Shown here: positions 5,201 to 64,000 of the stretch, in pieces
How positions within the stretch are numbered: the first letter of the stretch is position 1
Layout: each line of letters opens with the position of its first letter
NCBI GenBank assembly: GCA_963693285.1
Contig: OY848920.1
Span: 3,919,135 to 3,983,134 of the forward strand
Direction: 5' to 3'
DNA length: 64,000 bases
DNA from: Xestospongia muta
Taxonomy: Eukaryota > Porifera > Demospongiae > Haplosclerida > Petrosiidae
Notes under the pieces: model-generated
Databases searched by the model: none
What the model was told of the DNA's origin: nothing
What the model saw: the letters and a program-made list of their open reading frames with translations, nothing else
Made by a program: the position numbers and the translations under genes

Positions 5201-8200
5201 AGTGAACCAAGGTAGTTGACAAGATTCATTGATACAAGCAGTTGTATGGTTGTCACAACAGGTAACTGTTTTCTGGTCATCATTTAAATAACAAAAATGT
5301 TCTGGAGATTCATTGGAGCATATCTTACAATAAAAATATTCTTCGAAGCTTTTAAAGTTAGCCATACATTGGAAATTGCTGATGACTTCACGGATGCCAG
5401 AATGGACAGCTTCACGTAAAACACAGCATCTTTTCAATGGGTCAGTACTGTATATTGCCATCCAGTAAATCCCATCGACTAAGAGAATGTCACCATAATC
5501 AGTACGTAAAGTAATAGCATTACGATAACGTGGAGTGGAATGTGAAGGACGTCTAAGTTGAAACTTTGGTGAATGATTACGATGTAGAAGGTTGACAACT
5601 AATGCAGGAAAGACACCTCGAGGAAGAGGTTTCATATCCCAACACAGAATTAGAGGGTCAGTGTATTGCTTGAATGAAGCAGGTATAGATTTATATTCTA
5701 TAAAGGAGGTGGTAGTAGGAAGGACAGTTGGTAGAAAGTATTTTCCTTTCTCAGGTAGAGAGGCTATTATAAATAAACTTGTCATTAACTTGAGAAAATC
5801 TTGTGGTGTAAACTCAGGACAGAATCCTTGTGATAAATGTGAATTGGGTGATGTCAACAAGTCTTCTTTAAATGTTCCTTCATCTTTTAGTTCTTCATGA
5901 TCAGCATAACTATGTATAGGGATACCTTCTTCCTCCAAGTAATCAACAACACCAGGAAAAGAGATACTAATTAAATCAGAGAGTTTATTGAAAAGTGGTT
6001 GTGGATGAAGGAACACTACATTAGGCAATATTTTAGGAAAGTACAGAAAGATGGTCAGATCATGGTAGTAGTTTAGAGCTGCTTTGATGTCACTAGCACT
6101 CATTTGTAAGGTCATACCAATCTCTAAACAATTAGACAGACTTACAATGTTGGATTTAGAAGACTTTTGGAGCACAATTTGAAACAAAAACCATCGAATA
6201 GGGATTTCTGCCTCAATGTAATACTGGCAGATTTTTTTTCGAATTCTAGTAGCCATTATTGTTTCATCATCACCTCTGCCAATAGTATTGACTGGAAAAA
6301 TTATTTCATTTCCAGCTCTGCGATGCATAATTGTGATTTGCCGATATTTCTCTAAAGCTGCCGAGAGAATTGCGTTTTTCTTTTGGAGAGACTCATAAGA
6401 TTCTAGCATTTTATCCAAGAATGTCCCTAGTACTATGTAGAAGGGTTTTTGAAGATGTTTTATACGAATGTTTGGTAATTCAGGAAAATCAACTGACAAT
6501 ACTGAACGAAATGATGATTCAAGAAGTTGTAAATTTGTGATCTGTTTTTCTACTGGCTCACCAATTAGTTTTCCCTCGACACTATAGAAGAACTTAGCTT
6601 TGTCCTCGAGCTTCTCAGTTAGTTTGTGTGTAAGAATATTGACAGAGTGATATCGTAACAATGTTGGAGCAATGTCTATAAATGCAGCCTGACCACCAGT
6701 ATCAACACCATATATCCAATGAGATCGATAAAGCTCTTCAGACTTCTCTACACAGGCTAAGAGGTCAATGATTTCCTGAATTATAGTAGGTTCCGGTAAA
6801 GAGTTCTGATCAACTGTTTGATCATGTCCTGCTATGGTTGATGATTCAGAATCATCACTGTCTGATGTTTCTTCTTGTTGATCTGTTGGGTGATCAACTG
6901 ATTCCTCTAATGGCTGGTTTATTGGTTTGTTTTCTGATGAGCCAGGTTTCTCTACTACCTCTGGTTTGAGAGGTCGAACGCTATGTTTAACTCCTTGAGT
7001 AATTCTTTCTTTAAGAGACTCGTGGTCTACTTTATTCCACATGGAATCATCATCTACAGTGGCAGATATGATCCTTGCTTCTTTTGCTGCAATTACTGGA
7101 GTACTGTTATGGCATTCTGGAGGATCTTCATTATAGAGCAGGTTTAAAAAGGACGACTTGCCAGTTCCAGGTGCACCCGAGACAGAAAACTTGGTCCATT
7201 TAGCAGTGACGTAGCCCTCCTTCATAGCTTTGTCCAGTAACTTCTTGTTAGCACCTAATATATAATAGAAATAAAATTTTAAACTTTGATTTAAGTAAAC
7301 AATGTTAACAAGGATTACATAATATATTATAATGATTAGACTTCTAATTGTGGTAGCTATAAATTATAGATATTTTAAATTTCCAATTCAATTCTTTAAT
7401 ACTAGCTAGAATATAGTCAGTTCCTATTGTCCAGTTTAACAAGTACAAGTACATAACTCTTTGTGTACATGTACAATAGATAATAGAGTAAAGGAAAGAG
7501 ATAGGACTTGTGGGTGTGGTTACAATAGGATATAAATTTATATAGCTACTATAAATGGACACATGTACAGTTGACTGGAGTCATAATTTCAGTAACAATT
7601 ACAAACAACATGTTTACAGTAGTAAGGTATGTAATGTTTGAACTTTCATTGTTATATATAAAGTTCACAAAAGCTTATACAATAGTGTTCACATTAAGGT
7701 AACAAGTGTAGTTGGTTTATATTAATCACTTTTTATTAAATCAGTGGGTGTAATGTTGTGATAATTGTTGTGATAATAAGCCACAAGTATATTGATTAAT
7801 AATTTATATTAGCACAGTAAAGTTATAAGGTCTTGTGGTTAGGAATCACTGAAACAACTTGAAAACCTTCATGTGTTGTCCTAGATATATTGACAAGTGA
7901 GTATGAGAAGCAAAATTAACTATTTGTTGAGTATATTATCAGTAATGGTCCTGGTAGAGATACACACTAAACTTTTCTCTAGTGACAATGGTGAGAATCC
8001 ATACCAGGAATACTTAGTATTAAGGGACATATATGCACTGGGCTCCAAAATGACCCCTGAATAAACCATCCCAGTACATAATAAGTATTAAGGGATACTT
8101 GGTATTAATGGTTACATACATATGTACTTGACTACTATAAGGACCATCCCAGGATGTACAAAGTATCAAGAACATAGTGTTAAGGGATACATATACACTG

Positions 8201-11200: not shown

Positions 11201-13852
11201 ATGATGAGGATGGAGTTTTGTTCACATGTATCCTCTTTTTTATATGAACAGCATTGATGCTACACTACACAATGTGACACCAAAAGTAAAAAGTGACCCA
11301 TATACAAGTGTAGTTTGTTGAACCCATCTTTAGACACATCCAAACACATTAGAAGTTCATTCTTAATATAAGTATTACATACTATATGTACGTTATAACT
11401 CATTGACACAATACTGTAATTATTCGAAAATTTTGTGCCTCTAATTTGAATAATAACTAATTTTTTGTAAATTTTCTATAATAATTCTCTCTAATATTCC
11501 TTTGTAAAATTAAAGCTTCATGTATTTATAATTTTGTCATTTACCTCCTTATTTGGCAAGGTATGCAATGGAAAAGACGGAGATTTGAACATTAAAAAAA
11601 GCAAAGAGGACAGCATTTTACTGTAATGATTATCATTGTTATTAATTTTAATACCATAATAGTAGATCAATATTCTCATGACACATGTTCTACTATTCTT
11701 CTATTTATTGTGATCACTACTGTGTATCTATCATGACTATTCATTTCTTCTATTTCTCCTGAAACTTGTCTCCTACCTCAGGACTCCATTCAACTTTGTA
11801 AATGTGATAACCTCTGTACCATATTGGACAAATTGGCTCCTAGAACTTAGTCTGTTGTCTCTTTATTTTTAATTAGTCTGTCCTTGTTACTGTACATTGT
11901 TACTTTGGTACAGTGTATTGACAGTGACATTAGGTGTGGTTTATATTTAATTTAATTCAATAAAGTTTACATCTATAAACTGACTTAATTCCATTCAAAA
12001 AGGATTGTTAATGACCTTCATTATATGGAAAGGTCAGAACAAGACATGACTACCTACAAACTGATCACAATTATTCATAACATGTACAAAGCATTCCTGT
12101 GTTCAAATTATAACTGATACAATCAACATCAAACCACTTTGAAGTGAATTGAGACTAATTTGATTTTTCAATCACATTCAACTGATGTACATTGTGTGTG
12201 AACAATGTTGATTATAACTGAATTGAATACACTTTACAGTAGTAGTCTGAACACCACTATTAATAACCTCATTACTTAATAATAATAACTTATTACTCTT
12301 ACCAGTACTAAGATATTGACGTATTAGATCAGCTGTCTCCTTGTCATTAACAGTAGGACTCTCAATAGCAGCAATCACTGTTTCCCAGTTAACAGGGGAT
12401 GATTGACTAGTTAGAAAGTTCTCAATGACTACTAAGAGTTTATAATCATTGTCCATCTGATCGTGTTTCAAATAATCCAAAACACTGCGACGTACTTGTA
12501 ATGATAATCCAATATCATACCATTTGTCACTGATATCATCTAATAGATAGGATAGTTCATGAATTGTAGGAGTCTCCTTTAATATACTGGTAATATCTGA
12601 GATAACAACAAAATAATTATTATAATAAACTGTACATTATAAATTAATTAACGTGTTAAAAATATCATTATAAATGTATGTGGTATTGATTAAGTGTTGA
12701 CAAATGAAAACTTCAATTATCAATAAATGGACATGGAATTTAATACACAAACTTGGAATATAAAATTGGAATTATATTTATACAATTAACTAGGACATCT
12801 ACATGTACTACTATTCTTCTACTGTTAATAACATTTACTGTTTATCATTCAATGACTTCACTCACACTGATCTAACAAATTTACTACTTATAATACAATG
12901 GTTTGTGATTGGGCTATAAATAGAATATGTGGTATGTCAAAGAAATACCATACTCTATCCAAGTTGAGAACAGCTCCTCATTAAAAGAGGTGTTTTATGC
13001 ATGGCATGTAAGGTGAGCTATTTCCTCACCTATTATATGCATTTATTACTGAAGTGCATTTTAATGTTACTCATTATTTGGTCACACGAATGTCATGTGA
13101 ACACATCATGTTTTCAATCATGTTTGTGAAGATGCCAAAGCAAAGAAACAGATGTCACAAGCAAAGGAGGTTGTTACAAATGTCTATGACTATTTTGAGA
13201 AAACTCAACAGGTGTAAACAGACTCAAGGATCTCATAAATGAACATCTGATGTCACAGGAGTTTCATGTAACAGTATCAAGAGGCTATGAAAAGAGAAAG
13301 TTCTAGGCATTCTCAGCCTCCTTTCTTTGTAAAAAGGTTTTTTCAGAACCACGGTGGCTTTATAGCTACCTTAAATCATAAAAGAGAATACCTAATTACC
13401 GTTTTAATAATAATTGTTATAATAGAACATCTGTTCATATAATTATAACTGTAATTTTGAATTGCCATGTGACACATGGCTGACTTCTCAAGGTGAAAAG
13501 TGTTATTCGTTAAATCTTTGAAGGCACATAACTTACAGTATGATGAAGGTATGCCATTGAAAATGTATGAAGTTTTATAGTTTGCTACTTTCTCATAGCA
13601 CTAGAGAGCCATATTTTATATATAAAAGCATGTTTGCAAGATGAATCCATTTGTGAAAGTCCCATGTAGATAGCATGTAAAACGTCAAAGTTATTTACAT
13701 GTCTGGGTGGCCCAACTCAACTCGGACAGAGTATAAATAAAGTAGACATTGAACGCATTAGGGTGGGGCTAATTATTAACTAGTAATACATGGACAGTTA
13801 TCTTTGTTACTGTCTACAATTATAATGATCATTTACCTGCTGCCATTTTCAT
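2212..13852 (-). CDS. Gene A: Death - ROCO-like NTPase - Death protein (7-exon model)
   Basis: My splice model is complement of 13837-13852, 12303-12596, 9212-9268, 5194-7254, 4504-4554, 3145-3419 and 2212-2232, about 924 residues. Every join has GT-AG ends and keeps frame, and internal junctions up to exon 6 are phase 1. Exon 1 gives MKMAAG in a good initiation context. Exon 2 is a Death-fold domain. Exon 4 is a ROCO-like GTPase/COR exon with P-loop GAPGTGKS, DTGGQ and IPIRW motifs. Exon 6 is a second Death-type domain. ROCO plus Death is known from DAPK1-type proteins, so a cytosolic signalling or innate sensing role is inferred by analogy. The 3' end is the weakest part: exon 6 either splices to the 21-nt terminal exon or reads into a stop at 3103 (about 931 residues). 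Kinase, LRR and NACHT parts are not seen. Confidence 0.8.
2233..3144. other. Intron between last two exons of gene A
   Basis: AT-rich intronic sequence between the C-terminal Death exon and the proposed terminal micro-exon. I see no further coding or repeat structure that I can name. Confidence 0.5.
3145..3419 (-). CDS. Gene A exon 6: C-terminal Death-type domain
   Basis: The exon carries a second, distinct Death-type domain of about 90 residues. Features are ARTEKWNELGTQLQLD, a helix with LTSMYQLWIQEKADKATRRS, and LLDALRAIKQNNVARIYEDY, the classic last helices of a Death domain. It enters in phase 1 from the short proline-rich exon 5 (4504-4554, PSPPHPASQDP) and ends in phase 0 at ATG|GTAAGT. 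No equivalent was found downstream of gene B, so this domain separates the two paralogues. If the donor is not used, the frame ends 42 nt further on at 3103. Confidence 0.85.
3602..4040 (+). mobile_element. MITE 1 with captured HIRAN-like fragment
   Basis: The element begins CCGTATTTGCAGGTTATTA and ends with the imperfect inverse (…ACCAGCAAATACAG), flanked on both sides by TA. It sits in the intron between exons 5 and 6 of gene A. Inside, on the plus strand at about 3739-3900, frames read IIQGHHIYKKYEQ and, after a frameshift, VKVEAKEHNHFAVSVMKDGF followed by IVGHA. This matches the HIRAN-like pattern GHHxYKxxW…E..N.hD.fAVsVmk...IVGHvP. The domain is broken by a stop and a frameshift. No transposase is present, so it is non-autonomous. 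The TA duplication and inverted ends suggest a Tc1/mariner-like mobiliser. Confidence 0.75.
4504..4554 (-). CDS. Gene A exon 5: proline-rich linker exon
   Basis: This 51-nt phase-1 exon follows the ROCO exon. It encodes ATLPSPPHPASQDPKLVG after the split codon is restored and looks like a flexible linker before the C-terminal Death domain. Acceptor CTATAG and donor GTATGT are both good. No copy was found downstream of gene B. Confidence 0.7.
4555..5193. other. Intron 4 of gene A
   Basis: AT-rich intron between the ROCO exon and the proline-rich exon. No gene, repeat array or element end was recognised. Confidence 0.5.
5194..7254 (-). CDS. Gene A exon 4: ROCO-like P-loop NTPase with COR-like region
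   Basis: The exon is 2061 nt, about 687 residues, open throughout. Counting from the methionine at 7225, the Walker A motif GAPGTGKSS is at residues 17-25. An acidic Ser/Asp-rich insert follows, then a switch-II-like DTGGQ at 175-179 and a G4-like LGTFLDK near 266. IPIRWFLF at 341 begins a COR-like region with a typical HDLTIFLYFP and LHPQPLF. The C-terminal third carries a conserved PRGVFPALVVNLL and a Cys/His-rich tail. The long gap between P-loop and DTGGQ is unusual for Roc domains, and the G4 motif lacks a standard NKxD. GTP binding is therefore probable, not certain. The true 5' end is the acceptor at 7255-7256 (TATTAG), not the internal methionine. Confidence 0.85.
7255..9211. repeat. 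Intron 3 of gene A with degenerate minisatellite (about 7980-8600)
   Basis: The intron contains a degenerate tandem repeat. Units combine AAGTATTAAGGGATAC, ACATATGCACTGGGCTCC, GACCATCCCAGGATGTAC and similar pieces, with a period of several tens of bases. The same family recurs at 31030-31290, 42000-42480 and 43280-44480. The surrounding sequence (7500-8830) is paralogous to 42780-43680 plus 44290-44690 in gene B. Confidence 0.7.
8819..9098. mobile_element. Fold-back insertion present in gene A, absent from gene B
   Basis: Compared with the paralogous stretch around 44690, gene A holds about 280 extra bp between TTTACTATG and TAATATAAAACTATCAG. Its left part is an imperfect palindrome: CTACGCGAGGTTATTTAGTTG pairs with the inverse of CAACTAAATAATCGACACGTAG, about 70 bp away. 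It is locally richer in G+C than the surroundings. It looks like a small fold-back or MITE-type insertion; no coding capacity is seen. Confidence 0.6.
9212..9268 (-). CDS. Gene A exon 3: short linker exon
   Basis: A 57-nt phase-1 exon joins the Death exon to the ROCO exon and encodes a polar linker ending NTDTEISDSG. The acceptor is ATGTAG and the donor CAG|GTAATT. Gene B has the equivalent exon at 44804-44875, longer by 15 nt through what looks like a local repeat of the IERL segment. The matching position and phase in both genes supports it as a real exon despite its size. Confidence 0.75.
9269..10690. other. Intron 2 of gene A, block shared with gene B
   Basis: This block is closely similar to 44890-46300 in gene B, including a short apparently open stretch at 10351-10587 that is disrupted in the other copy. 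I see no convincing gene; similarity is explained by segmental duplication. A third, shorter and more decayed copy lies at about 26940-27900. Confidence 0.6.
10697..10924. mobile_element. MITE-like element with 16-bp inverted ends
   Basis: The ends are AAACTTGATTCTACAA and the inverse TTGTAGAATCAAGTTT. A body of about 165 bp (10732-10900) recurs in opposite orientation at 13542-13702. In gene B the corresponding place at about 49612 lacks this body, so the insertion is specific to copy A. Confidence 0.65.
10965..11090 (+). pseudogene. MADF-type DNA-binding domain fragment
   Basis: On the plus strand the frame reads DEKLIETVRCFPCLWKVSSK, then SYKDARARENTWKEVAS followed by a stop. This is the first part of a MADF (Adf-1/Myb-SANT-like) domain: LI..V...P.LW....Y.D......W.eVA. 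The upstream MSSSNQISITT stretch is in a different frame, and the rest of the domain is missing or lies behind the GTAACT that follows. MADF domains accompany PIF/Harbinger-type transposons, so this is probably a transposon relic in an intron of gene A. An almost identical copy is at 49675-49797. Confidence 0.65.
11160..12302. other. Intron 2 of gene A, 3' block shared with gene B
   Basis: The sequence is closely similar to 49860-51012. It includes a short inverted motif (ACTACACAATGTGACACC) that pairs imperfectly with TGCGTCATGTTGTGTAGTGT at about 49530 in the B copy, hinting at remnants of a TIR element around the MADF fragment. No gene is seen. Confidence 0.45.
12303..12596 (-). CDS. Gene A exon 2: N-terminal Death-fold domain
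   Basis: The exon encodes 98 residues with the Death-type signature: LLDDISDKWYDIGLSLQVRR, then a variable loop, then NWETVIAAIESP and an ETADLIRQYL helix. The W in KWYDIG and in NWETV match the hydrophobic core expected in the fold. The acceptor ends TATCTCAG and the donor is GTAAGAG; both junctions are phase 1. Length is exactly 294 nt, the same as the two Death exons of gene B. Joined to exon 1 it reads MKMAAD-ITSILKE. It could mediate homotypic interactions with other Death-domain proteins; the choice between Death, DED and CARD folds is not settled by eye, though Death fits best. Confidence 0.85.
13130..13320 (+). pseudogene. Relic resembling a transposase N-terminal region
   Basis: On the plus strand one frame reads AKAKKQMSQAKEVVTNVYDY then FEKTQQ. 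After a frameshift it continues VNRLKDLINEHLMSQEFHVT and VSRGYEKRK. The style (KEVVxNVYxYF followed by basic helices) resembles the N-terminal part of transposases common in invertebrate genomes. A second copy at 51845-52025 shares the breaks. Family assignment is tentative. Confidence 0.4.
13542..13702. repeat. Inverted copy of the 10732-10900 repeat
   Basis: This stretch is the near-perfect reverse complement of 10732-10900. The two lie about 2.8 kb apart on either side of the first Death exon of gene A and could pair in the pre-mRNA. Confidence 0.8.
13837..13852 (-). CDS. Gene A exon 1: start codon exon
   Basis: The 16-nt coding exon reads MKMAA plus one base of the next codon and ends at a GTAAAT donor. 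The context AAAATGG around the second ATG suits initiation. Joining it to the Death exon at 12596 keeps frame. No hydrophobic leader is encoded, so gene A is predicted to start directly as a cytosolic protein, unlike gene B. The assignment rests on frame and position only. Confidence 0.6.
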
Positions 13853-38817: not shown

Positions 38818-41800
38818 TTAAAACTCACATTCAAACCAAGGTAGTTGACGTGACCTATCAGTGTTAGTTGTTTTAGAGCTATCTTGACAAGTAAGTGTTA
38901 ATTTATCATCACTTAAACGACAAAAATGTTCTGATGACTTATTAGGGCAATCTGGTATTTTACAATAAAAGTAATCTTTAAGACTGTATTCATTAACTGT
39001 ATATTGGAATTTGCTGATGACTTTAACAATTCCTTCATGTACAGCATTATGTAGAGAATTACATTCTTTGGAAGGGCCAGAATAGTAGATTGCCATCCAA
39101 AAAATCCCATCAACTAAAAGAACATCACCACCATATGAAATAGCTTGTAAATTGATCATATTACGATAACGTGGTGTGGAACGTAGAGAACGTTTAAGTT
39201 GAAAAGCAATCTGATTTTTAGGACATAAAAGATTGACAACTAATGCAGGGAAGATACCTCGAGGAAATGGTTTCATATCCCATGATATAATTAAAGGATC
39301 AACATATTGGTTGAAAGTTGATGGTATGGACTGAAAGTTGGTAGATGTAGTAGGAAGGACAGTTGGAATAAAGTATTTTTCTTCCTTGGGTAGATAGGCC
39401 AAAATGAGTAAACTGGTCATTAAATGGAGAAAATTGTCTGTTGTAAAGTCATCAGAGAATCCACTAAAAAGGGGTAGTGACAATAAGTCTCTTGTAAAAC
39501 AACCTTCATCTTTGAGCTCCCTATAAACATTTGATTTAATAACAATACGATTACCTTCTATACTGGGAACTTTCAAACGATCAATTGTTTCAGCAAAAGA
39601 GATACTAATCAAATCAGAAAGTATAGTAAATAGTGGTTGTGGATGAAGGAACACTACATCAGGTAAGATATCAGGAAAGTAAAGGAAGACAGTCAGATTA
39701 TGGTAGTACATTAAAGCTGCTTTAACATCATCAGCTTTCATTTCTAAGCTTTTGCCGATATCTTGGCATTTAGATTTACTTACAACAAATATGTTAGATT
39801 GACAAAACTTCTGGTCTAATTCTAGCTTAAACAAAAACCATCTAATAGGGATTGGAGCTTTTAGGGAATATTCACATATTTGACAACGGATTTCATCAGC
39901 TAGTTCTTTCGTGTCCGTGTCTCTGGCAATAGCATTGACAGGAAAGATGATTGAATTTCCTTCTTCACGATACAGAATAGCTTGATCTTTTAGATTAAAT
40001 TCTTCCAATTTTGACCAAAGAATAGAATTTTTGGCTTCTATTGACTCACCAATATAACCAGGCTTCAGCAATTCATCGTAATATGTCCCCAATATTATGC
40101 AGTGTGGCTTTTGAACATTCTCTAATTCTTTCTTATTTTCAGACATTGTTAGAGGATTAACTGATGTTAATGAACGAAATGAAGCTTCAAGAAGCTGTAG
40201 ATTTGTAATCTGCCTTTCGTCTGGATCACCAATTAGATTACCTTGAACACTGAAGAAGAACTTAGCGTTGTCATCAAGGGGCTCATCCAGCTTGTGTGTA
40301 AAAATATTGACTGAGTTATATCGTAACAAGACTGGAGCAATGTCTATAAATGCAGCCTGACCACCAGTATCAATACCATATATCCAATGAGCTTTATAAA
40401 GTTCTTTAGAATCCTGTACATGATCTAACGATTTAATGATTTGATCACATACATCAGACTTTGGTCTGTCTTCTATTGTGGTTATTTCGTTAGAGTCTAG
40501 TAATGGATGACGAGACTCAGTTGCTTCTGTTTCTTCAATTGATCTGCCAAGTACATCACTTCCCACTTGATGACTTTTGACTTCTGGTGATACTTCCATG
40601 TTGTTCTTAATATTTCCAGCAATAATTTCCTTTATATCATCTGGATTCACCTCTTTCCATAACGATTTGTGATCATCACCTTTGATGGCAGTCATGACAT
40701 GTACTGGACGTGGAGCAACTACATTAGTACTGTTATGTATATTGTCATCATTACTTCGTTTATCATTATATAGTATTTTTAAAAAAGATGATTTACCAGT
40801 TCCAGGTGCACCAGATATTGAAAACTTGGAGAATTCAGCAGTTACAAAACCCTTCTTCATAGCTTTGTCCAGTAACACATCATTGTTATCTAGTAAACGA
40901 AAAATACTTATTATAATTATCTTTAAACTTTATTTAATTTTTAATTCAAGAAACACATTTGCTACAAATGTTAGGTTATAAAATAAATTGTTATTTTGAG
41001 AAAGCTCAAGGTGTCAGCTTGGAACTAAATATTAGAACAAGTAAAATAAACCTTTTTATTCTACAAAGAATTATATGACTGTCTGACATGGTATGTATGA
41101 CAAGTAAATTGAGCAAAATGGTCCCAAAAATCACCTTTTAAATGAGAATTGGTTTCTAATCCCTTTCCTTTTCACTATGATATGCATATATTATAATACT
41201 GAAATGAACCTATAAACTATACTTTGTCCAAGATGACTACTGCTTCAATGATATATCTAAGGCTTAGGATAAGCTAGAGAGAAAAGGTTTGTTTTATTCA
41301 TTAAATCTTCAAAATCCACTTAAAACTTGAGTAAATTGGAGTGTTAGATATTTGAAAAAGAAAACCATTATAAAAAGGAATAGCATTGTTGACATACCAC
41401 CATGACAAAATATCATGCATAATTCCAGATTATTAACAAATGTACAACAAACATTCACTAACTAAATGTAATGTTTAAAAACAGTGAAAATTGTCTTTTG
41501 TAGAAATAAATCCTAGTGTACATGAAAAATAAATAATAGGTAAGGGTAGGCTTGGGGTATAGCTAAATTTGGACATACATTTATATAGCTACCATAAATA
41601 TGGACACATATACAGTTGACTAGAGTCATAATTTCAGTAACAATTATAAACAAAATGTTTGCAGTAGTAAGGTATGTAATGTTTGAACTTTAATTGTAAT
41701 ATATAAAGTTCATAAAAGCTTATACAATAGTGTCCTGGCCTTAAAGTGACAAGTGTACTTAGTTTATATTAATCACTTTTTATTAAATCAGTGGGTGTAA

Positions 41801-44800: not shown

Positions 44801-47800
44801 TACCTGAATCAGATATTTCAGTGTCAGGATTACGATTAGATGGAAGTCTCTCAATTCGAAGTCTGTCAATTACTTCTACATGAACAAACAAATTATAGAT
44901 AATATCAATAATAATAATGAATTAATTAATAATGACCTAATGTTTGGATATACTAACTACAAGTTAATACAGTTATTAGTTATGTTGTTGTCAGAATTGT
45001 ATAAATTCATAAACTATAATTAAATGAACTGTCAGTTCTTTCACTCAAACCTAACATTACATATTTTGGACCACATGTTCTGTATGTATTACATAACTCT
45101 GATGTATCAGTAACTTGTACTATGCTATGCATTAATTAACCAATAAGGTTTCTCCATATTTAGGTCAATAAATAACTTCCACACTTCCCATAAAGGTATA
45201 TAAGTTCTAATACAATCTTTGTTACAACACTTACATCAATATGATACAAGCCCAAATCTAAGTTGCTACAAGGTCTAAACTACTGTAACTCAATATATGC
45301 ATAAAGCTAACTAGTTGCATTTACAACCACATTGTTGTTACATCCATTTTACTATAGTAATTGAATCATGGCTTCAATTGAAGCTATAAGCACATATTGT
45401 TTCAAGTTAACTAACCCAGTTAATTCAGTTGAAATAGTATCTATCTGTCACTCATAGTTTCAGTTATTGGACATAAACTATAAAGAGTAATTTTTGACTT
45501 CTAGTCAGCTTTATACATATTGAATTGTACCAGTTTTGGCTTTGTTGGGCCTACATCATATTGATAAGATTCTGGTAACCAAGACAACAGTTGAAATGAT
45601 AAAATCCTATTTTAAGTGATATATATAGTTACAAGGTGTTCCCTCCCTTTACTGAACTCTAAACTGGACAGATGACAAAAGAAAAGTCACATGATGTTAT
45701 TAAGCATTTAGTGTATCTAGTTTTATATATAATATGATAAATTGTTAAACAAATTAGTGAACAAGACTATAATTTATAACATTATAATTACAAAACTCAT
45801 CGTAACATTCTTTAATAGTGATGCTAGTGATGTAAACTAGAAAAGTTATAATTTGATTTAATCTACTGTATGGTCCTTGTAAAAACTTTAAGAATCCTTT
45901 CAGTCTAGCTTTAACTACAACAGTAACTGTGAGTTAAACAGATAAGGATTACTATTATGTTGATGTCACACCATCAACAATTCTTTTATACTTTTAGTAA
46001 TGGCAAGAAAGCATTTGAATACTTTTTCATGTTAAGGAATGATTATCTGGGGATGAGACTAGGAACATTGGTGACACTTAGATTGTTCAATATTAAAGAT
46101 ATCTGTTTTCTTTATAAAAAAATCTTGTTGTTATGAAGGATTAAGCTATTACACTGACAAAACAGACTCTCCAGTTTACAATGGCTTCCTCATAAGACGA
46201 CAAAAGATTTGATTTGACAAAACAATTCAACTTATTATCTTCTTACTACTATTGATATTAGAACTTAGCTAAAGCTAACAAGTAGATTTGACACACATGT
46301 ATCCAAAGCAGCAGATGCTGAGTATCCAATATAGCAATTGAAATGAAGCAATCTGATTGGTCAACATGGTCCAAGTCTGTTATACAAAAATTCAACTCTC
46401 TAATTTTTAAATAACTAATTATGTAGATATTTTTTCTGATATTATCTCTAATAATTCATCATTAAAATTAATTTCCTTAAGTATTCTAATTCTGACACAT
46501 CCCTCTATACTTGACAAGTGTGTTCATATGTGATATCATAGAGATGTACAAGCTCTACATCTACCTCTAACTTTGTCAAAAATAATTATTGTTAAAGAAA
46601 CATCAAATTTTACCTCTAAACAAATCTAATTTGATGAATATTTATAAACTTTATTGCTATTAATGATGGATGTGTCTAGAATATTATGGGGACTACTATG
46701 ATCATCATAAGTCTAGATTCAGGGACATTTACATAGTGTACAGCTTCTGTATATAATAGTATACCGTATAGCGCTTTATTTTCAAGGAGCTAAAATTTAG
46801 AGGATTGCTGTAACTGAATTATTTTGCGGAATAAATTTCGAGGTTACTGCAATTGTTAAACTCCTGCCCCTAGCCGGCAAGAGTAGTGCACGTGGGCCTA
46901 TTGCAATGGCTACTTTTAGAGTTGAAGCGATGGTTCATGGCTACCATGTATACCAGTGCGTATTTGGACTCCTAATGTTGGGAAAGAACTGCCATGCAGA
47001 AAGAAATACAGAAACACTCAAGATCCCTTCGCTTTGGCTGTGCTTCATGGAACTACTACTTATCACATGTGTGGGTGTGTGGCTAAAATCGACCCCATAG
47101 CTGACCTTGATTATACCATATAATTCAAGGACCCAATTTTCGTCTCTAAGACAAAATCTGCAAAAACCTCGAAATTTAAGCTCCTCGAAAATAAAGCGCT
47201 ATACGGTAGTTGTCTATAACATCTTTAACTAAACAGATAAGAATTACTATCAAGTCAGTATGTTGGTTCCATGTGTGTATATGTTATGAGACATATTGTA
47301 AGATAGACACATCCTAAAAACACAATAAAGTTCATTCTAAATACCAGTACTACATACTACATGTATGTTGTGATGTATAGAAGTAGTTAATAAAAAACTA
47401 TATCAAAGTCTTTGATAACAGAATGATAACATTTTGTAATTCAAAATGTTTGTACTACACAGTTTATTGACAGTGACAGTATTAATAAAACAACATCATT
47501 ACTTAATAATAATAACTTACCTAATTTAAGATATTGACGTATACTATTAGCTATCTCCTTGTTGTTAATAACAGGACTCTCTGCAGCAGTAATCAATGTT
47601 TCCCAAGTATCAGGTGATGATTTTGTTTCTTCCCAGATGTTGATTACTTTCTTGAATTTGGTTACGTCATTGTCCTCACTTTGTTTTATCTCATCCAAAA
47701 CATTGCGACGTACTTGTAATAATAATCCAATATCATACCATTTGTCACTGATATCAATTAATGCAATAAGTAGTTCACCTTTATTAAGAGTCTCCTTTAA

Positions 47801-50800
47801 TATACTGGTAATATCTGAGATAACAATGTAACAATTATTATAACAAACTGTCATGTTATAAATTAATTAATGTCTTAAAATTATCATTTTAAATGTATGT
47901 GGTATTGATTAAGTGTTGACAAATGAAAACTTCAATTATCAATAAATGGACATGGAATTTAATACAGAAACTTGGAATATAAATTGGAATTATATTTATA
48001 CAATTAACTAGGACATCTACATGTACTACTATTCTTCTACTGTTAATAACATTTACTGTTTATCATTCAATGACTTCACTCACACTGATCTAACAAATTT
48101 ACTACTTATAATACAATGGTTTGTGGTTGGGCTTTAAATAGAATATGTTGTAAATGTTTCAACTAATACTGGATATTAAGTACTTTAGGGTGTGGCTTGT
48201 TTAGGTTAATTATAAATTAGTTGTACATGTGTACATGTTAACAAGTAAAGTAGTAATTTGTGTGTGTACTGTTGACGTATACTAATATTAATAATTAACA
48301 GACATGTATATAGTATTTAAAGTCATTTTGATCATTGTAACTTAAAAAGCAAAGTATAATACTAACACTCTTTTTCATAGTAAACAGTGCTAATGTATCA
48401 TAGTTTGTGTCATTATAATAACAGAAAATTATCCATTTTTAACTATTTTCTATATTATATAGAGACAATGATATAAACAGTAACTACATCACAGAGACAA
48501 AGTAGAACTTAGCCTCATACCCAGACATTCATTCAATGGAAGGATGAGTTGTAATCTATCAAGCTAGACCCTCCTCTTTGCACAAGAAGAGTCTAGTAAA
48601 AGTCACAATTGATTAACTTCAACTGAACAATTAGATTCCACTACTCATATTCTGGCTAGTGTGGGTGGTAGGAAGTAGAATATAAATGTTGTTATTTATA
48701 TTCTATATTTATATTTTTGAAGTGAAGAAAGATATTTTAGTCCTTTTTTTCAAACTAAGACTGTTTTATGACTCTATAAGTCAGTAACTATGATGTTTTA
48801 AAGTATGTAAATCTACAAACATAACATAAATGCATTGTAAAGGAAATTAGTATGCTCCAGGAAAGGGTGTGGCTTCTTTATTTCCATTTATCATCATTAA
48901 TTAAAATTCTGATAAGACCTTTACTAGACATTTCTAACACATCAGTTAAGAGGAGGGTATAACTGGATAGACTAGATGAACTGGTAACTACTACTTGTAC
49001 ATGTAACAATTAATTGGAATCAATGATAAAGTCATTCATGAGCTAATCCTTTAACAATGAAGTAGTCATAATTAAAGTAAAATAATAAATCAATGATATA
49101 TATTCATTTCCTTTATATTATAGCTGACTATGAAAAGAGTTGGACTCTGTCTTCTAAAGCAGATAACATCAAGTTTGCTATGTAACATACAATAGAATGG
49201 TAAGCCTTAAAATATCAGATGAAATCAGTCACTGTTCATATCATATGAGTCATCAAATCAAGTGTATAAGTATACATAAGGTAGATAGACATGTAATACA
49301 CTGTATTGTAATGAAAAACAAACTAGAAAAAACTGGGAAAGTTTTCATTTGATTGAATCTACTGTATGGTCAATGAACAGTAACTGTGAGTTAAACAGAT
49401 AAGGATTACTATCAAGTCAATGTGTTAGTATGGTATGTTCTATGTGTGTACATGTTACATGTTATGAGATCATCTTGTGAGTGAAGGCTGGTTCACATAA
49501 CAACACAAAGCTTTGCATCACATTGCGTCATGTTGTGTAGTGTGTACACACGTCAATTTATGAACACAGTGTGTGCACGACCTACAAATGTGACATGTCA
49601 CAACGCGAGGATAGAATCAAGTTTCAAGCAATGTCTTCATCCAATCAAATTTCAATAACCACATGTTTTGAGTATTGACAGACGAGAAACTTATTGAGAC
49701 TGTTCATTGTTTCCCTTGCTTGTGGAAAGTATCTAGCAAAAGCTACAAGGATGCAAGAGCAAGAGAAAACACATGGAAGGAAGTGGCAAGCTAGGTAACT
49801 GAATAAACAACAAACAGAAATTATACATAGCTGTTGAGTAAATATAGGATACACCTACATTGTTCACTTCAGTCTCCATTTTGTACTAGTAATAGAGTTT
49901 ATAATGATGAGGATGGAGTTTTGTTCACATGTATCCTCTTTTTTATATGAACAGCATTGATGCTACACTACACAATGTGACACCAAGAGTGAAAAGTGAC
50001 CCATATACAAGTGTAGTTTGTTGAACCCATCTTTAGACACATCCAAACACATTAGAAGTTCAATCTTAATACAAGTACTACATATTATACGTACGTTAAA
50101 ACTTATTGACACAATACTGTAATTATTTGAAAATTTTGTGCCTCTAATTTGAATAATAACTAATTGTTTGTAACCTTTCTATAATTTTTCTCTCTAATAT
50201 TCTTTTGTAAAATTAAAGCTTAATGTACTTATAATTTTGTCATTTATCTCCTTATTTGGTAAGTTGTGCAATGGAGAAGATGGTGATTTGGACATTGAAG
50301 AAAGCAGAGAAGACAGTATTTTACTGTAATGATTATCATTGTTATTCATTTTAATACCATAATAGTAGATCAGTTTGGAATATTCTCATGACACATGTTC
50401 TACTATTCTTCTATTTATTATGATCACTACTGTGTATCTATCATGACTATTCATTTCTTCTATTTCTCCTGAAACTTGTCTCCTACCTCAGGACTCCATT
50501 CAACTTTGTAAATGTGATAACCTCTGTACCATATTGGACAAATTGGCTCCTAGAACTTAGTCTGTTGTCTCTTTATTTTTAATTAGTCTGTCCTTGTTAC
50601 TGTACATTGTTACTTTGGTACAGTGTATTGACAGTGACATTAGGTGTGGTTTATATTTAATTTAATTCAATAAAGTTTACATCTATAAACTGACTTAATT
50701 CCATTCAAAAAGGATTGTTAATGACCTTCATTATATGGAAAGGTCAGAACAAGACATGACTACCTACAAACTGATCACAATTATTCATAACATGTACAAA

Positions 50801-53800
50801 ACATTCCTGTGTTCAAATTATAACTGATACAATCAACATCAAACCACTTTGAAGTGAATTGAGACTAATTTGATTTTTCAATCACATTCAACTGATGTAC
50901 ATTGTGTGTGAACAATGTTGATTATAACTGAATTGAATACACTTTACAGTAGTAGTCTGAACACCACTATTAATAACCTCATTACTTAATAATAATAACT
51001 TATTACTCTTACCTGTACTAAGATATTGACGTATTAGATCAGCTGTCTCCTTGTCATTAACAGTAGGACTCTCAATAGCAGTTATCACTGTTGCCCAGTT
51101 AACGGGGGATGACTGACTAGTTAGAAAGTTCTCAATGACTACAAAGAGTTTATCATCATTGCCCCTCTGATTGTGTTTCAAATTATCCAAAACACTGCGA
51201 CGTACTTGTAATGATAATCCAATATCATACCATTTGTCACTAATATCATATAATAGATTGAATAGTTCAAGAATTGTAGGAGTCTCCTTTAATATACTAG
51301 TAATATCTGAGATAAAAACAAAACAATTATTATAACAAACTGTCATATTATAAATTAATTAATGTTTTAAATATTATCATTTTAAATATATGTGGTATTG
51401 ATTAAGTGTTGACAAATGAAAACTTCAATTATCAATAAATGGACATGGAATTTAATACAGAAACTTGGAATATAAAATTGTAATTATATTTATACAATTA
51501 ACTAGGACATCTACATGTACTACTATTCTTCTACTGTTAATAACATTTACTGTTTATAATTTAATGACTTCACTCACACTGATCTAACAAATTTATTACT
51601 TATAATACAACGGTTTGTGAGTGGGCTATAAATAGAATATGTGGTATGTCAAACAAATACTATACTCTGTCCAAGTTGAGAAGAGCTCCTCATTAAAAAA
51701 AAGGTGTTTTATGCATGGAATGTAAGGTGAGGTATTTCCTCACCTATTATAGGCATTTAGTACTGAAGTACATTTTAATGTTACTCATTATTTGGTCACA
51801 TGGATGTCATGTGAACACATCATGTTTTCAATCATGTTTGTTAAGATACCAAAGCAAAGAGACAGATGTCACAAACAAAGGAGGTTGTTACAAATGTCTA
51901 TGACTATTTTGAGAAAACTCAACAGGTGTAAACAGACTCAAGGATCTCATAAATGAACATCTGATGCCACAGGAGTTTCACGTAACAGTATCAAGAGGCT
52001 ATGAAAAGAGAAAGTTCTAGACATTCTCAGTCTTCCTTCTTTGTAAAAAGGTTTTTTCAGAACCACGGTGGCTTTATAGCTGCCTTAAATTGTAAAAGAC
52101 AATACCTGATTACCGTATTAATAATAATAATCATTATAATAGAACATCTGTTTATAATTATAACTGTAATTTTGAATTGCCATGTGACATATGGCTGACT
52201 TCTCAAGGTGAAATGTGTTATTTGTTAAATCTTCGAAGGCACATAATTTATAGTATGACAAAGGTATGCCATTGAAAATGTATGTGACACATCCCTAATA
52301 GAATATGTTTCAATGCTCATATAGTACAAAGCATTGCATGAGCATCATCAGCATATAGAGTGTTATAGCAAAATATTATAAATAAGGAAATAAAATTTTT
52401 TTAAATTATTATAAATAAGGAAATAAAATTCTTTGGCTTGTGTAGCTACAAAAGGATATTGCAAAACATTTATCTGTTCTCATTAAATTTGAGGTCAACA
52501 TGTTATTGAGTTTGCCATTGGAATCCAACAATCAATAGGATCTAACACATAAATGTCACTTTCTGTTATCAAAATAGCCAGAGGCATTCAAAATTACACA
52601 GCCAACAACACTACTATAATGGTTTTATAGCACTCAAACTAAGACATAAATGTGGAAGTAGTAAACTGCTTATATATTCTCTATTTATGTTTACTTATTG
52701 CTTCTTTCTTTGGACAAAGGTTTTGGATTTTCAATCCAAACTAGTTTATATAAATAAAGAGTATAAACAAATGTAGCTTGTGTGATAAGCATATATGTGT
52801 ATAAGTGCTGAAAAGGCACAACAGTTGGAGAGCTGAATTTATGAACCAATCAATATCAATAATTAAAACATGGCATAAGCTCATTGTTAGTTGTGACATA
52901 ATTAGAAAGACTGTCACTAAAATGTAAATACAGAGTTCACTGTATATTAGCAAGCCATTATTGTTTGTGCAATTGTTGAATATAATTGAACACAATAATG
53001 TCAGCTTTTAAAGAAATGTAGAACTGAACTTATAGTTTGATGAAATTCTAATTCTGGAACACTTTGCCCATAAAAAGGACAGTCTCAAGCATTTTTACTA
53101 TACCAAATGTCTAAACAAAACTCAGCCACAATTCTGTTGTCTTGATTATGATTTCAAAAAAACTTATTTCTTGTTAAAGTCCTTATAGATCTCACCAATA
53201 GTGACAAATATAAAACTATAGAACACAAAAGCTATATGTATTTAATAGGTTTTTTGGACTAACCTCTTTTCATATTCAATTCAAACTAGTTTGAATAATT
53301 ACAATTGAGAACAATAATAGCCTACATGAGTGCTTGAAATACTTGGAGAGCTAAGTTAATTAACTAATGGCACCTAAGCTGACAGTAATTAAGTTCATCA
53401 TAGTTTGATGAGCTATCATTGTTAATGTAACTGTCAACTGTTATTGACCTGAGTAGTGTCAGACATTGCTTTATAAAATTCAAATTTCGGAATAAACTTT
53501 TTATCTGTAACAGGGATAATTACTCTAACTCATAAGTGACTAATAGATACATAGATATGTATAAAAGGGAAACAAGCCATTTATTTTAATAGTAGAGTTA
53601 CCAGTTTCAGGGCCAGGATTGAGTTCAACATCTCCTGATAAAATGAGAAGAAGTGAGAGAAAGACTCCTAACGAGAAGGTAACATCTTTAATCTTCCTGA
53701 TCATAGTCACTCCATCTATCCTACTACTGCTCTCAGTGTTTGGAGTTCCTTTTGTGTGACTGCTATAAGATGTCTGATGACATGCCCACAATCCAATACT

Positions 53801-53827
53801 CAATCTCCATTGAATGGTATCAATCAT
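38818..53827 (-). CDS. Gene B: 2A leader - Death - Death - ROCO-like NTPase (5-exon model)
   Basis: My splice model is complement of 53602-53827, 51013-51306, 47521-47814, 44804-44875 and 38829-40889, or to the stop at 38818 if the last donor is unused (about 985 residues). All joins are phase 1 with GT-AG ends. The order is a 2A-type leader, two tandem Death-fold domains, a short linker and a ROCO-like NTPase. Compared with gene A it gains the 2A leader and a second N-terminal Death domain. It shows no C-terminal Death exon within the window. The ROCO exon ends at a good donor (GAAT|GTGAGT), so further exons may have been lost or displaced by the hAT insertion. Function is inferred as innate sensing or death-type signalling, by family analogy only. 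Confidence 0.75.
38829..40889 (-). CDS. Gene B exon 5: ROCO-like P-loop NTPase with COR-like region
   Basis: The exon is 2061 nt, the same length as its gene A counterpart, and open throughout. Motifs in order are SGAPGTGKSSFL (Walker A), an acidic and variable insert, IYGIDTGGQAAF (switch-II-like), LGTYYDELL in the G4 position, PIRWFLFKLELD starting the COR-like region, YYHNLTVFLYFP, LHPQPLF and PFPRGIFPALVVNLL. A Cys/His-containing tail (FYCKIPDCPNKSSEHFC) precedes the donor. The variable insert and the G4 region differ most from gene A, while the COR-like part is well conserved. GTP binding is likely; the non-standard G4 leaves nucleotide preference open. Confidence 0.85.
40890..43690. repeat. 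Intron 4 of gene B with minisatellite blocks
   Basis: The intron holds an internal duplication: 41570-42660 and 42780-44690 are two copies of the block also found at 7500-8830 in gene A. Each contains the TACTAAGTATC / CCCAGGATGTAC minisatellite (about 42000-42480 and 43280-43680). No gene is seen. Confidence 0.7.
43691..44292 (+). mobile_element. MITE 2 with captured HIRAN-like domain
   Basis: Ends are CCGAATTTCCTCATGTAAAC and, inverted, CCGTATTTCCTCGTAGAAAC, flanked by TA. The related minisatellite at 31190, 42290 and 8390 shows the uninterrupted site (AATACTTAGCACTAA). On the plus strand at 43813-44043 the element encodes 76 residues: VVTGHHIYKTIWTPFIGEML, then NLYDRYAESLTRDSKIIEHM and ISKVSWHFLKH. 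This fits the HIRAN-like pattern found in the other two MITEs and is the best preserved of the three. A stop follows immediately after FLKH, so the domain is truncated at its C-terminus. Confidence 0.8.
44293..44803. other. Intron 4 of gene B, distal part
   Basis: Continuation of the block paralogous to gene A 8390-9210, without the 280-bp fold-back insertion present there. No gene is seen. Confidence 0.6.
44804..44875 (-). CDS. Gene B exon 4: linker exon
   Basis: A 72-nt phase-1 exon encoding a polar linker (VIDRLRIERLPSNRNPDTEI then SDSG). It is homologous to gene A exon 3 but 15 nt longer. Acceptor CATGTAG, donor GTAATT. Confidence 0.75.
44876..46763. other. Intron 3 of gene B, block shared with gene A
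   Basis: Closely similar to 9280-10690 up to about 46300, then to 27650-27900. The short frame equivalent to gene A 10351-10587 is disrupted here, which argues against a gene in either copy. Confidence 0.6.
46764..47206 (+). mobile_element. MITE 3 with captured HIRAN-like fragment
   Basis: Ends are CCGTATAGCGCTTTATTTTC and its near-perfect inverse, flanked by TA. The inverted ends extend about 40 bp. On the plus strand from 46906 the frame reads MATFRVEAMVHGYHVYQCVF and continues to KNCHAERNTE; after a frameshift the pattern resumes as NTQDPFALAVLHGTTTYHM. Together they fit the HIRAN-like template (HGYHVYxxxW, E.N..DPFA.AV). The domain is decayed. Terminal sequences beyond CCGTAT differ from MITEs 1 and 2, so this is a separate subfamily. 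Confidence 0.8.
47521..47814 (-). CDS. Gene B exon 3: second Death domain
   Basis: Another 294-nt phase-1 Death exon, more diverged: ETLNKGELLIALIDISDKWY, then LLQVRRNVLDEIKQSEDNDV, KVINIWEETKSSPDTWETLI and EIANSIRQYLKLG. Acceptor TATCTCAG, donor GTAAGT. The tandem arrangement with exon 2 doubles the N-terminal interaction module. Because both exons are symmetric phase 1, either could be skipped without losing frame, so alternative splicing is possible. Confidence 0.85.
47815..51012. other. Intron 2 of gene B
   Basis: Between the two Death exons. 47815-48140 repeats the sequence downstream of gene A exon 2. 48420-49200 resembles parts of 29400-29720. From about 49612 it is close to 10910-12300. 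It contains the second MADF fragment (49675-49797). No gene of its own is seen. Confidence 0.55.
49675..49797 (+). pseudogene. MADF-type DNA-binding domain fragment, second copy
   Basis: Almost identical to 10965-11090: LTDEKLIETVHCFPCLWKVS then KSYKDARARENTWKEVAS and a stop. The sequence upstream differs from the A copy (49490-49612 has GCTGGTTCACATAACAACAC and several ACAC/TGTG motifs), which may be the original transposon flank. Confidence 0.6.
51013..51306 (-). CDS. Gene B exon 2: first Death domain
   Basis: The exon is 294 nt, phase 1 at both ends, and very similar to gene A exon 2. It shares ISDKWYDIGLSLQVRRSVLD and ETADLIRQYLSTG; differences cluster in the loop around LKHNQRGNDDKLF and the ILELFNLLYD start. 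Acceptor TATCTCAG, donor GTAAGAG. It follows the 2A leader directly in the model. Confidence 0.85.
51307..53601. other. Intron 1 of gene B
   Basis: 51307-52290 matches intron 1 of gene A and holds the second copy of the transposase-like relic (51845-52025). A 35-bp direct repeat (AAATTATTATAAATAAGGAA type) lies at about 52370-52430. The remainder is AT-rich without a supported gene; 52440-53560 resembles 30120-30370. Confidence 0.5.
53602..53827 (-). CDS. Gene B exon 1: hydrophobic leader with 2A ribosome-skipping motif
   Basis: The exon encodes 75 residues plus one base. A second in-frame methionine at 53704 begins MIRKIKDVTF, followed by a hydrophobic run (SLGVFLSLLLIL) and then SGDVELNPGP. 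The core DVELNPGP (residues 66-73, bases 53609-53632) fits the D[VI]ExNPGP consensus of 2A sequences, where the ribosome skips the Gly-Pro bond. The exon ends two codons later at a GTAACT donor in phase 1, matching the Death exon at 51306. 2A sequences overlapping signal peptides are established for sea-urchin NLR-type immune proteins and are reported from sponges. Here skipping would release a cytosolic Death-ROCO protein starting with proline; without skipping the leader could direct the protein to the secretory route. Non-LTR retrotransposons also carry 2A, but no reverse transcriptase is seen nearby. Confidence 0.8.
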
Positions 53828-53829
53828 TA

Positions 53830-54420
53830 CTACAATGTGAAAAGATCTATTTACAATAAAAGTTTTATCACATCAATTAAAATGAAAGTATATGTAATAT
53901 GATATGCATCAATGATTTGTCAATGATATCTTTATGTATACAATAATACAAAAGAATATAAGAATAATTGGCTGTTTATATTATGTGTGTATATGAATCA
54001 GCTCTGGTTCAATGAGCATAACATCAGTTTATAATTTTTGCATGAGTGAAATACTCATCTACATATATAGATATCAAAATGTGTAATATCTACCGAGTTA
54101 ACTCATATTTCTTATTGATTGTTGAGAATTTTAGAATAACTGTATCCTAAAAATATGAAAATATAACTGGTTCATATTACAAAAATTGATGAAATTAGAC
54201 ACCTGTGGAAAAATTATGGTGCAGCATATACATCCAAGGTGGTCTAGTGGTCAGTGAACCTTCTATTTGTAGAGTGTCTAGTCACAAGTGATAACTATAT
54301 TATATATATACATCAGTACCATAATACAAGACTTTTTTAAAGGAGGTTAAATTTTTAGCATGCAGAGAGTGCTGTGAATGAAGACATATTCATGAATATG
54401 TATCCTAATTTGAGAAAACA
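53830..54420. other. Upstream region of gene B
   Basis: Presumed promoter side of gene B. A tRNA-A-box-like string (GGTGGTCTAGTGGTCAGTGA) occurs at 54239 but no complete tRNA follows. No other element is recognised. Confidence 0.35.
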
Positions 54421-62340: not shown

Positions 62341-62519
62341 AAGGGGGGGACACGCCAAAATTCAAAAATTTTTTTTGCATAAATGTTATCTTTGACATAT
62401 GCAATTCACCCTAAAAATATTTCAATAATTTTTAAAAATTGTTATCACTGTTAAAAGCAAGCTTCTTTTAGAAGCTCTTATAAGGGTTCTTCTGAGATTA
62501 CAATGTTCTTCCCAATAGG

Positions 62520-63564: not shown

Positions 63565-63831
63565 CTAATCTGAAGATTCTGACTCAGAGCCATTTTCCTC
63601 TGGTTCATACTGATATGGAACAACTATGTTCTCAGAGCCTTCCTCGAGGTCAGATTCCACACACGAAGCAGGGTCACTGCTTTCGATCATATCGAAGGAA
63701 GAAGAAGAGTAGGAGAGGCTTAATATGCTGGAATACAGACTAGATACATTGCATTGAAAGTCTTCAGCCACTACTTTGCACCTAGCAAAGCTAGCATTCG
63801 TTCCCCTTGTGACGTCACACGGGAGCCCCAC
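63565..63831 (-). pseudogene. Inverted second copy of the P2X7-type N-terminal exon
   Basis: This minus-strand frame is almost identical to the exon at 62520-62790 (for example SSSFDMIESSDPASCVESDL), with one residue change noted near the start (SFARCK for SIARCK). It stops early after SESSD by a TAG and lacks the downstream cysteine-rich part. It exists because it lies within the right inverted-repeat arm. Confidence 0.8.
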
Positions 63832-64000
63832 CCTACTAGGAAGAACATTGTAATCTCAGAAGAAGCCTTATAAGAGCTTCTAAAAGAAGCTTGCTTTTAA
63901 CAGTGATAACAATTTTTAAAAATTATTGAAATATTTTTAGGGTGAATTGCATATGTCAAAGATAACATTTATGCAAAAAAATATTTTTGAATTTTGGCAT

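What the first reader, a model, noticed from the sequence alone, without database searches (positions are those of the whole stretch)
53602..53827. 2A ribosome-skipping signal fused to a Death-Death-ROCO immune-type gene
Seen: a hydrophobic leader runs directly into SGDVELNPGP, two codons before a donor that joins in phase to the Death exon at 51306. Known: D[VI]ExNPGP motifs cause ribosome skipping, and in sea-urchin NLR-type proteins they double as signal peptides giving dual targeting. Inference: gene B makes two products, a cytosolic Death-Death-ROCO protein starting with proline and an unskipped form that enters the secretory route. To my knowledge 2A leaders are described on NLR-type proteins and non-LTR retrotransposons; on a Death-ROCO protein this may be new. 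The paralogue gene A starts without any leader.
Basis: partly seen in the sequence, partly recalled or inferred. Interest (0 to 1): 0.9.

Follow-up and report, generated by a model that had tools for sequence, protein, structure and literature searches.

The report
Ribosome-skipping leader shared by immune genes
In this animal genome, probably a sponge, one short exon occurs in at least 156 copies, most of them upstream of immune-type exons, and most copies checked carry a signal predicted to make the ribosome skip one peptide bond, so that each such gene would likely yield a free sensor protein plus a separate hydrophobic leader peptide.

Summary
In detail: window 53827-53602 (-) encodes a 73-residue leader ending SGDVELNPGP, two codons before a phase-1 donor that fits the Death exon at 51306; four joined exons give an open 961-residue frame. 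It is not a one-off. The genome holds 150 exact D[VI]ExNPGP matches (reversed control 0) and at least 156 homologous leader exons (capped lists). The same exon lies ahead of Death-NACHT, Death-ROCO, Death-ankyrin and Death-GBP genes; 103 of 156 leaders have such an exon downstream on the same strand. For one Death subtype 64 of 111 exons have a leader within 250 bp; in two loci leader and Death share one uninterrupted frame. On contigs C1-C11, 69 of 80 leaders keep the core, one has a variant reported active, and the 10 others have stop codons in leader or Death exon. A retrotransposon origin of gene B's leader finds no support. Skipping is inferred from sequence; secretory targeting of unskipped product is only weakly supported. 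Closest known: sea-urchin NLR 2A signal sequences. No RNA data; a 2025 survey of eukaryotic 2A could not be read.

The parts
53602..53827 (-). 2A leader exon (exon 1 of gene B), 73 residues to NPGP plus E, T and one base
   Evidence: homologous to at least 156 copies in the genome
53780..53827 (-). conserved N-terminal box MIDxxQWRxxIGLWxC (residues 1-16)
   Evidence: alignments; pN/pS 0.29 over 26 unique leaders
53636..53683 (-). hydrophobic stretch ending LLLILS (residues 49-64)
   Evidence: Kyte-Doolittle 19-residue maximum at least 1.6 in 26 of 26 leaders; pN/pS 0.37
53609..53632 (-). StopGo/2A core DVELNPGP; predicted skip between the last G and P
   Evidence: core class from PMC12846837 (passages)
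53600..53601 (-). GT splice donor, 7 nt after the NPGP codons, phase 1
   Evidence: 30 of 35 rows have GT at exactly +7
51307..51308 (-). AG acceptor, phase matching the donor
51013..51306 (-). Death-domain exon 1 of gene B
47521..47814 (-). Death-domain exon 2 of gene B
   Evidence: Pfam Death 21.4 bits, just under the 22.6 cut-off; 57% identical to exon 1
38821..40889 (-). Roc-COR (ROCO) exon of gene B
   Evidence: 40% identical over 702 positions to L020, which has COR-A above cut-off; no Pfam match by itself
12304..12597 (-). Death exon of paralogous gene A, no leader found upstream
   Evidence: 88% identical to gene B Death exon 1
5177..7363 (-). Roc-COR-type exon of gene A
   Evidence: 54% identical to gene B's

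Best explanation
The stretch is a leader exon, present in at least 156 homologous copies in this genome and predicted to be exon 1 of gene B and of many other immune-type genes, whose SGDVELNPGP core likely makes the ribosome skip the Gly-Pro bond. Skipping would release a ~72-residue leader peptide with a hydrophobic C-terminal stretch and let the ribosome go on to make a cytosolic receptor that starts with Pro, two residues ahead of its Death domain. A minor unskipped fraction would keep the hydrophobic leader and likely be held at or sent to a membrane. Shown: sequence, reading frame, splice-site phase, copy number, positional association with Death, NACHT, ROCO and GBP exons, and constraint on box, hydrophobic stretch and core. 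Inferred: splicing in vivo, skipping, and the fate of both products.
For: 150 D[VI]ExNPGP matches against 0 for the reversed pattern. At least 156 homologous leaders in the union of two capped searches. GT at exactly +7 after NPGP in 30 of 35 motif rows (28 of 33 distinct copies). 26 of 30 non-retrotransposon leader loci, window included, have a Death-type exon within 6 kb and 25 of those 26 have a phase-matching acceptor (L026 and L027 overlap and share one exon). 64 of 111 L015-type Death exons have a same-strand leader within about 250 bp, 54 of them 16-57 bp (approximate gaps), against 1 of 111 with an opposite-strand leader within 2 kb. Leaders with NACHT on the same strand within 10 kb downstream: 48 of 150; on the opposite strand 0. 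L041 and L042 read leader-core-Death in one frame without a stop. Pfam finds Death, NACHT, COR-A, ankyrin and GBP downstream in fetched loci. On C1-C11, 69 of 80 leaders keep the core; one has N for D, reported active above 95% in PMC12846837 (passage); the other 10 have stops in leader (6) or Death exon (4). pN/pS box 0.29, linker 1.00, hydrophobic 0.37. LLILSG before the core falls in the L-rich StopGo motif class of PMC12846837. 116 of the 120 listed public leader proteins keep the core.
Against: No RNA reads, ribosome profiling or reporter assay. 53 of 156 leaders have no assigned downstream exon (the feature lists are capped). Only 13 of 44 C4 ROCO exons and 41 of 98 NACHT exons have a leader nearby. 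Gene B's intron is long (about 2.3 kb) and its donor (CTG|GTAACT) is weaker than the common CAG|GTAAGT type. L019 has no phase-matching acceptor; L009, L021, L029 and L030 have no Death-type exon within 6 kb. The core conservation is biased because copies were picked by the motif. x is L here, whereas viral L-rich classes prefer S. Targeting: no SignalP run; hydrophobic stretch far from the N-terminus; no conserved positive charge before it.
Confidence: 0.65

Rival explanations
1. StopGo only: the hydrophobic stretch serves to stall the nascent chain in the exit tunnel; skipping is near complete, the leader is discarded and there is no dual targeting.
For: PMC12846837 (passages): L-rich hexapeptides ending (A/S/C)G before D are a functional StopGo class, and F2A L7A falls to 34% activity. 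Charge before the stretch flips sign: public leaders 63 negative, 5 zero, 42 positive (110 of 120 scored). Linker pN/pS about 1.
Against: The uncharged run is longer than six residues (own copies 17-29, median 21) and membrane-like in 26 of 26; the N-terminal box is constrained (0.29), which a pure stalling device does not need.
Confidence: 0.35
2. The core is inactive in this animal and the leader is simply an uncut N-terminal membrane anchor of these receptors.
For: Transmembrane segments have been reported in sponge NLR architectures (PMC12909245 section 4.2, citing Yuen 2014).
Against: The core, not just hydrophobicity, is retained: 69 of 80 copies on C1-C11, losses confined to stop-bearing copies; E, N, P, G, P fit all known requirements of the motif.
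Confidence: 0.08
3. The leader belongs to a non-LTR retrotransposon ORF and not to gene B.
For: This genome has a 2A-bearing retrotransposon class (L010, L014, L016), and such leaders are known from retrotransposons.
Against: Those elements have a different leader (MIPSSSSNYT..., CGDVEVNPGPPDD). Their reverse-transcriptase ORFs match only L010, L014 and L016 among 32 loci plus the window. One leader copy, L030, does have pol-like ORFs 6.8 kb downstream (by eye) and no Death exon.
Confidence: 0.03
4. The leader is a real immune-gene exon, but in gene B it is spliced elsewhere or is one of several alternative first exons (all gene B joins are phase 1, so it could also join Death exon 2).
For: Long intron; symmetric phase-1 exons; 31 of 44 C4 ROCO exons lack a leader within 25 kb.
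Against: Twin L035 and relatives L036-L038 keep leader, donor and a phase-matching acceptor at the homologous Death exon.
Confidence: 0.1

Closest known systems
N-terminal 2A-like signal sequences of sea-urchin NLR proteins (Roulston et al. 2016, PMC4981915; passages and section 5 seen)
   Same: 2A core at the N-terminus of Death/NACHT immune receptors; hydrophobic stretch directly before the core; paper reports 85 of 241 NLRs with 2A-like sequences and shows skipping plus signal-sequence activity for one of them.
   Different: There the leader is 26 residues with the hydrophobic part near the start; here 69-77 residues with a conserved 16-residue box, a free linker and the hydrophobic part from about residue 49; here one exon is shared by NACHT, ROCO, ankyrin and GBP genes and ends two codons after the core.
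StopGo/2A elements of RNA viruses, L-rich motif class (PMC12846837; passages seen)
   Same: Core D(V/I)ExNPGP; LLLLSG-like hexapeptide with G before D.
   Different: Cellular gene, N-terminal position, x = L rather than the S preferred in that class.
2A sequences in non-LTR retrotransposons (Odon et al. 2013; recalled and cited in PMC11512398, paper itself not held)
   Same: N-terminal 2A after a hydrophobic stretch; a class of this kind is present in this genome (L010, L014, L016).
   Different: Different leader, followed by zinc-finger-like and reverse-transcriptase ORFs, no immune exon.
Membrane-bound sponge NLRs reported for Amphimedon and Dysidea (PMC12909245 section 4.2 read; Yuen 2014 cited there, not seen)
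   Same: Sponge NLRs with predicted transmembrane segments.
   Different: No skipping signal mentioned there (terms NPGP and skipping: 0 occurrences); the present leader could explain such segments, untested.

Membership tests
StopGo/2A recoding elements | core D(V/I)ExNPGP in frame | tested here: met
StopGo/2A recoding elements | upstream context of a known active class | tested here: met
   LLILSG before D in the window and in 107 of 120 listed public copies, class described in PMC12846837
StopGo/2A recoding elements | two separate products in translation | not testable with these tools
   needs an assay
Sea-urchin NLR 2A signal sequences | 2A leader at the N-terminus of NLR genes | tested here: met
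   for other copies of the exon: 40 of 150 leaders have NACHT on the same strand within 5 kb; L015 Death + NACHT
Sea-urchin NLR 2A signal sequences | about 26-residue leader | tested here: not met
   own copies 62-74 residues to NPGP, public 71-77 (115 of 120 measured)
Sea-urchin NLR 2A signal sequences | predicted co-translational signal sequence | not tested
   no signal-peptide predictor at hand; hydropathy only
Non-LTR retrotransposon 2A | reverse transcriptase or endonuclease ORF following the leader | tested here: not met
   window and 29 other loci show no match to this genome's 2A-retrotransposon RT ORFs; other RT classes were not searched
Death-fold receptor | death-domain fold in the exon after the leader | tested here: met
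   Foldseek alone gave no match at E <= 0.001, best 2of5_H prob 1.00, TM 0.72
ROCO proteins | Roc GTPase followed by COR | tested here: inconclusive
   gene B exon has GAPGTGKSS and 40% identity to a COR-A protein, but no Pfam match itself, no solved relative and the model failed (pLDDT 27.7); the database lists precomputed PF16095 for its identical entry P0001

The most novel reading that the evidence does not exclude
The exon is a cellular StopGo cassette that gives every receptor bearing it a stoichiometric second product: a conserved ~72-residue peptide (QWR box plus hydrophobic C-terminal tail) that is released by skipping, inserts into membranes after translation and partners or restrains NACHT, ROCO, ankyrin and GBP receptors alike, so that one exon spread across unrelated immune families links them through a common leader peptide.
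Probability: 0.25. Interest if true: 0.88.

Novelty: new variant of a known kind. Interest (0 to 1): 0.68.

Why it matters
StopGo is said to be rare in cellular genes (PMC12846837, passage). Here a single exon with a StopGo core appears in at least 156 copies in one animal, ahead of several unrelated immune receptor families. If active, a large part of this animal's Death-domain receptors would be made as two products from one frame, possibly in two cellular places. It offers a direct, testable reason for the reported transmembrane segments of sponge NLRs, which are otherwise expected to be cytosolic. It also shows a leader moving between gene families as an exon.

Tried and rejected
Chance motif: rejected, reversed pattern 0 against 150 (with a looser V-only pattern gave 66 against 1). 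Retrotransposon ORF: rejected for the window. Viral source: viral contigs gave 7 pattern matches and no relative. First protein-database search with the fused 961-residue protein, region 1-90, found nothing; this null is uninformative, because the database holds exon-sized ORFs and my query set the length range to whole proteins; the leader alone found 669 clusters (all listed sources 'ena', organism unnamed, possibly this same species). ROCO model failed and PDB profile search found no relative (best E 0.42, P-loop matches only). Papers: searches showed no report of a 2A leader in sponges or on ROCO, ankyrin or GBP proteins; Rao et al. 2025 (Cell Rep 44:115822), a systematic survey of eukaryotic and viral 2A, known to me only from a reference list, is not held and may cover this. 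Odon 2013 not held.
Full report
What is there. On the minus strand, 53827-53602 encodes MIDTIQWRLSIGLWACHQTSYSSHTKGTPNTESSSRIDGVTMIRKIKDVTFSLGVFLSLLLILSGDVELNPGP, then E, T, one base and GTAACT. It is the only NPGP in the six frames of the window. The donor is followed 2.3 kb later by a pyrimidine-rich acceptor at 51308-51307 whose exon completes the codon as Asp and continues ITSILKET. Joining exons 53827-53602, 51306-51013, 47814-47521 and 40889-38821 gives 961 residues without a stop. The junctions are predictions; no RNA was available.

A genome-wide exon. The window lies in a 158-Mb genome of 28 contigs. D[VI]ExNPGP matches 150 times, reversed control 0. Searching with two leader peptides gave 150 hits each (capped), 156 in union: C4 44, C12 38, C14 33, C3 14, C1 11, C6 9, C9 4, C2 2, C5 1. 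The copies share M-I-D-x-x-Q-W-R-x-x-I-G-L-W-x-C, a variable linker, a hydrophobic stretch and LLILSG before the core. Of 35 motif rows in fetched loci and window, 30 have GT at exactly +7 (28 of 33 distinct copies, since L026 and L027 overlap); L009 has it at +19 in the same phase, L029 and L030 have none, L010 and L014 are retrotransposons.

Which genes. Of 30 non-retrotransposon loci examined, 26 have a Death-type exon within 6 kb and 25 of the 26 a phase-matching acceptor; L019 does not; L009, L021, L029 and L030 have no Death exon. L009 leads into a TPR exon. Fetched loci show Death + NACHT (L015), Death + COR-A (L017 and L019 under the cut-off, L020 above it), Death + ankyrins (L018, L031) and GBP (L025, L028). 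Genome-wide, 64 of 111 L015-type Death exons have a same-strand leader within about 250 bp, 54 of these with a gap of roughly 16-57 bp, against 1 of 111 with an opposite-strand leader within 2 kb. Of 150 leaders, 48 have NACHT within 10 kb on the same strand and 0 on the opposite strand; of 98 NACHT exons 41 have a leader within 6 kb. Of 44 gene-B-like ROCO exons on C4, 13 have a leader within 25 kb with no other ROCO exon between (12, 13 with the extra copies). In all, 103 of 156 leaders have an assigned immune exon and 53 do not; the feature lists are capped, so this is a lower bound. In L041 and L042 leader, core and Death lie in one uninterrupted frame, so the fusion is in phase with or without splicing.

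Constraint. Over 26 unique leaders pN/pS is 0.29 for the box, 1.00 for the linker, 0.37 for the hydrophobic stretch and 0.08 for the core; the core value is biased, as copies were picked by the motif. A less biased test: of 80 leaders found by whole-exon similarity on C1-C11, 69 keep D[VI]ExNPGP. Of the other 11, one has N for D (L043), a variant reported above 95% active in PMC12846837 (passage); six have stops inside the leader and four C1 copies have stops in the Death exon, L044 showing both a broken core and a broken Death exon. C12 and C14 could not be tested this way because the list was cut.

Mechanism. The core and the L-rich hexapeptide ending SG fit the active StopGo classes in PMC12846837 (passages), where L in the x position is among the observed residues although S is preferred in the L-rich class. 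At the moment of skipping the hydrophobic stretch would still be in the exit tunnel, so a signal-recognition decision could act only on chains that were not skipped (reasoning, not tested). Skipping would leave a leader peptide with a C-terminal hydrophobic tail and a receptor starting Pro-Glu-Thr-Asp at its Death domain. All 26 leaders have a membrane-like hydropathy maximum, uncharged runs 17-29 residues long. Against a classical signal peptide: the stretch begins around residue 33-49 in own copies, and the charge before it is negative in 14, zero in 1 and positive in 11 of 26 own copies, and 63, 5 and 42 of 110 scored public ones (10 of 120 dropped by the script). So skipping is likely, dual targeting open.

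Retrotransposon question. Three motif loci (L010, L014, L016) belong to an element with a different leader; their RT ORFs match no other fetched locus and not the window (other RT classes not searched). L030 has pol-like ORFs 6.8 kb downstream (by eye), no donor and no Death exon; it and L029 look like strays. The core with hydrophobic stretch may have come from such an element; the box has no known relative in Pfam or NCBIfam.

Known or new. Sea-urchin NLRs carry short N-terminal 2A signal sequences, 85 of 241 in PMC4981915 (passages). Here the leader is about three times as long, has a conserved box, and is one exon shared by several receptor families. PMC12909245 (section 4.2 read) mentions transmembrane segments in sponge NLRs; this leader may be their source. 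My paper searches found no 2A leader reported in sponges or on ROCO, ankyrin or GBP proteins, but Rao et al. 2025 could not be read. I therefore call it a new variant of a known kind.

Noticed in passing
L035 1-3001 versus window 50900-53900: Twin of gene B: leader 226 of 226 nt identical and first 400 nt of intron 395 of 400, yet the Death exon only 81% identical in protein: the Death exon diverges much faster than its flanks, suggesting diversifying selection or gene conversion.
   Followed up: partly
window 34040-36183 (-): Remnant of a hAT transposase (Dimer_Tnp_hAT 23.4 bits, DUF4371 74.9 bits) just downstream of gene B's ROCO exon.
   Followed up: partly
window 28575-29072 (-): Decayed Death exon with stops, tandemly duplicated with a 204-bp period.
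   Followed up: no
window 19545-28279 and 59433-62341: Arrays of a related 141-144 bp satellite unit on both sides of gene B.
   Followed up: no
window 8015-8329 and 43291-43609: The same 161-bp repeat pair lies near gene A and within gene B's span, a trace of their duplication.
   Followed up: no
window 62496-62822 (+) and 63565-63855 (-): Nearly identical ORFs in inverted orientation, no Pfam family for the first: fold-back mobile element?
   Followed up: no
L024-L028 (C3:11.68-11.74 Mb): Leader, Death exon and guanylate-binding-protein GTPase in one cluster: an uncommon Death-GBP combination.
   Followed up: partly
L009 (C1:568584): Single diverged leader (MVDISIWRARIGLF...AGDVEVNPGP) ahead of a TPR exon, with its donor at +19.
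   Followed up: partly
L026/L027 (C3:11711107 and 11711624): Two leader copies 517 bp apart ahead of one Death exon; the nearer lacks the N-terminal box.
   Followed up: no
window 57386-57610 (+): Weak IgGFc_binding match (16.4 bits, under the cut-off) in a plus-strand gene next to gene B.
   Followed up: no
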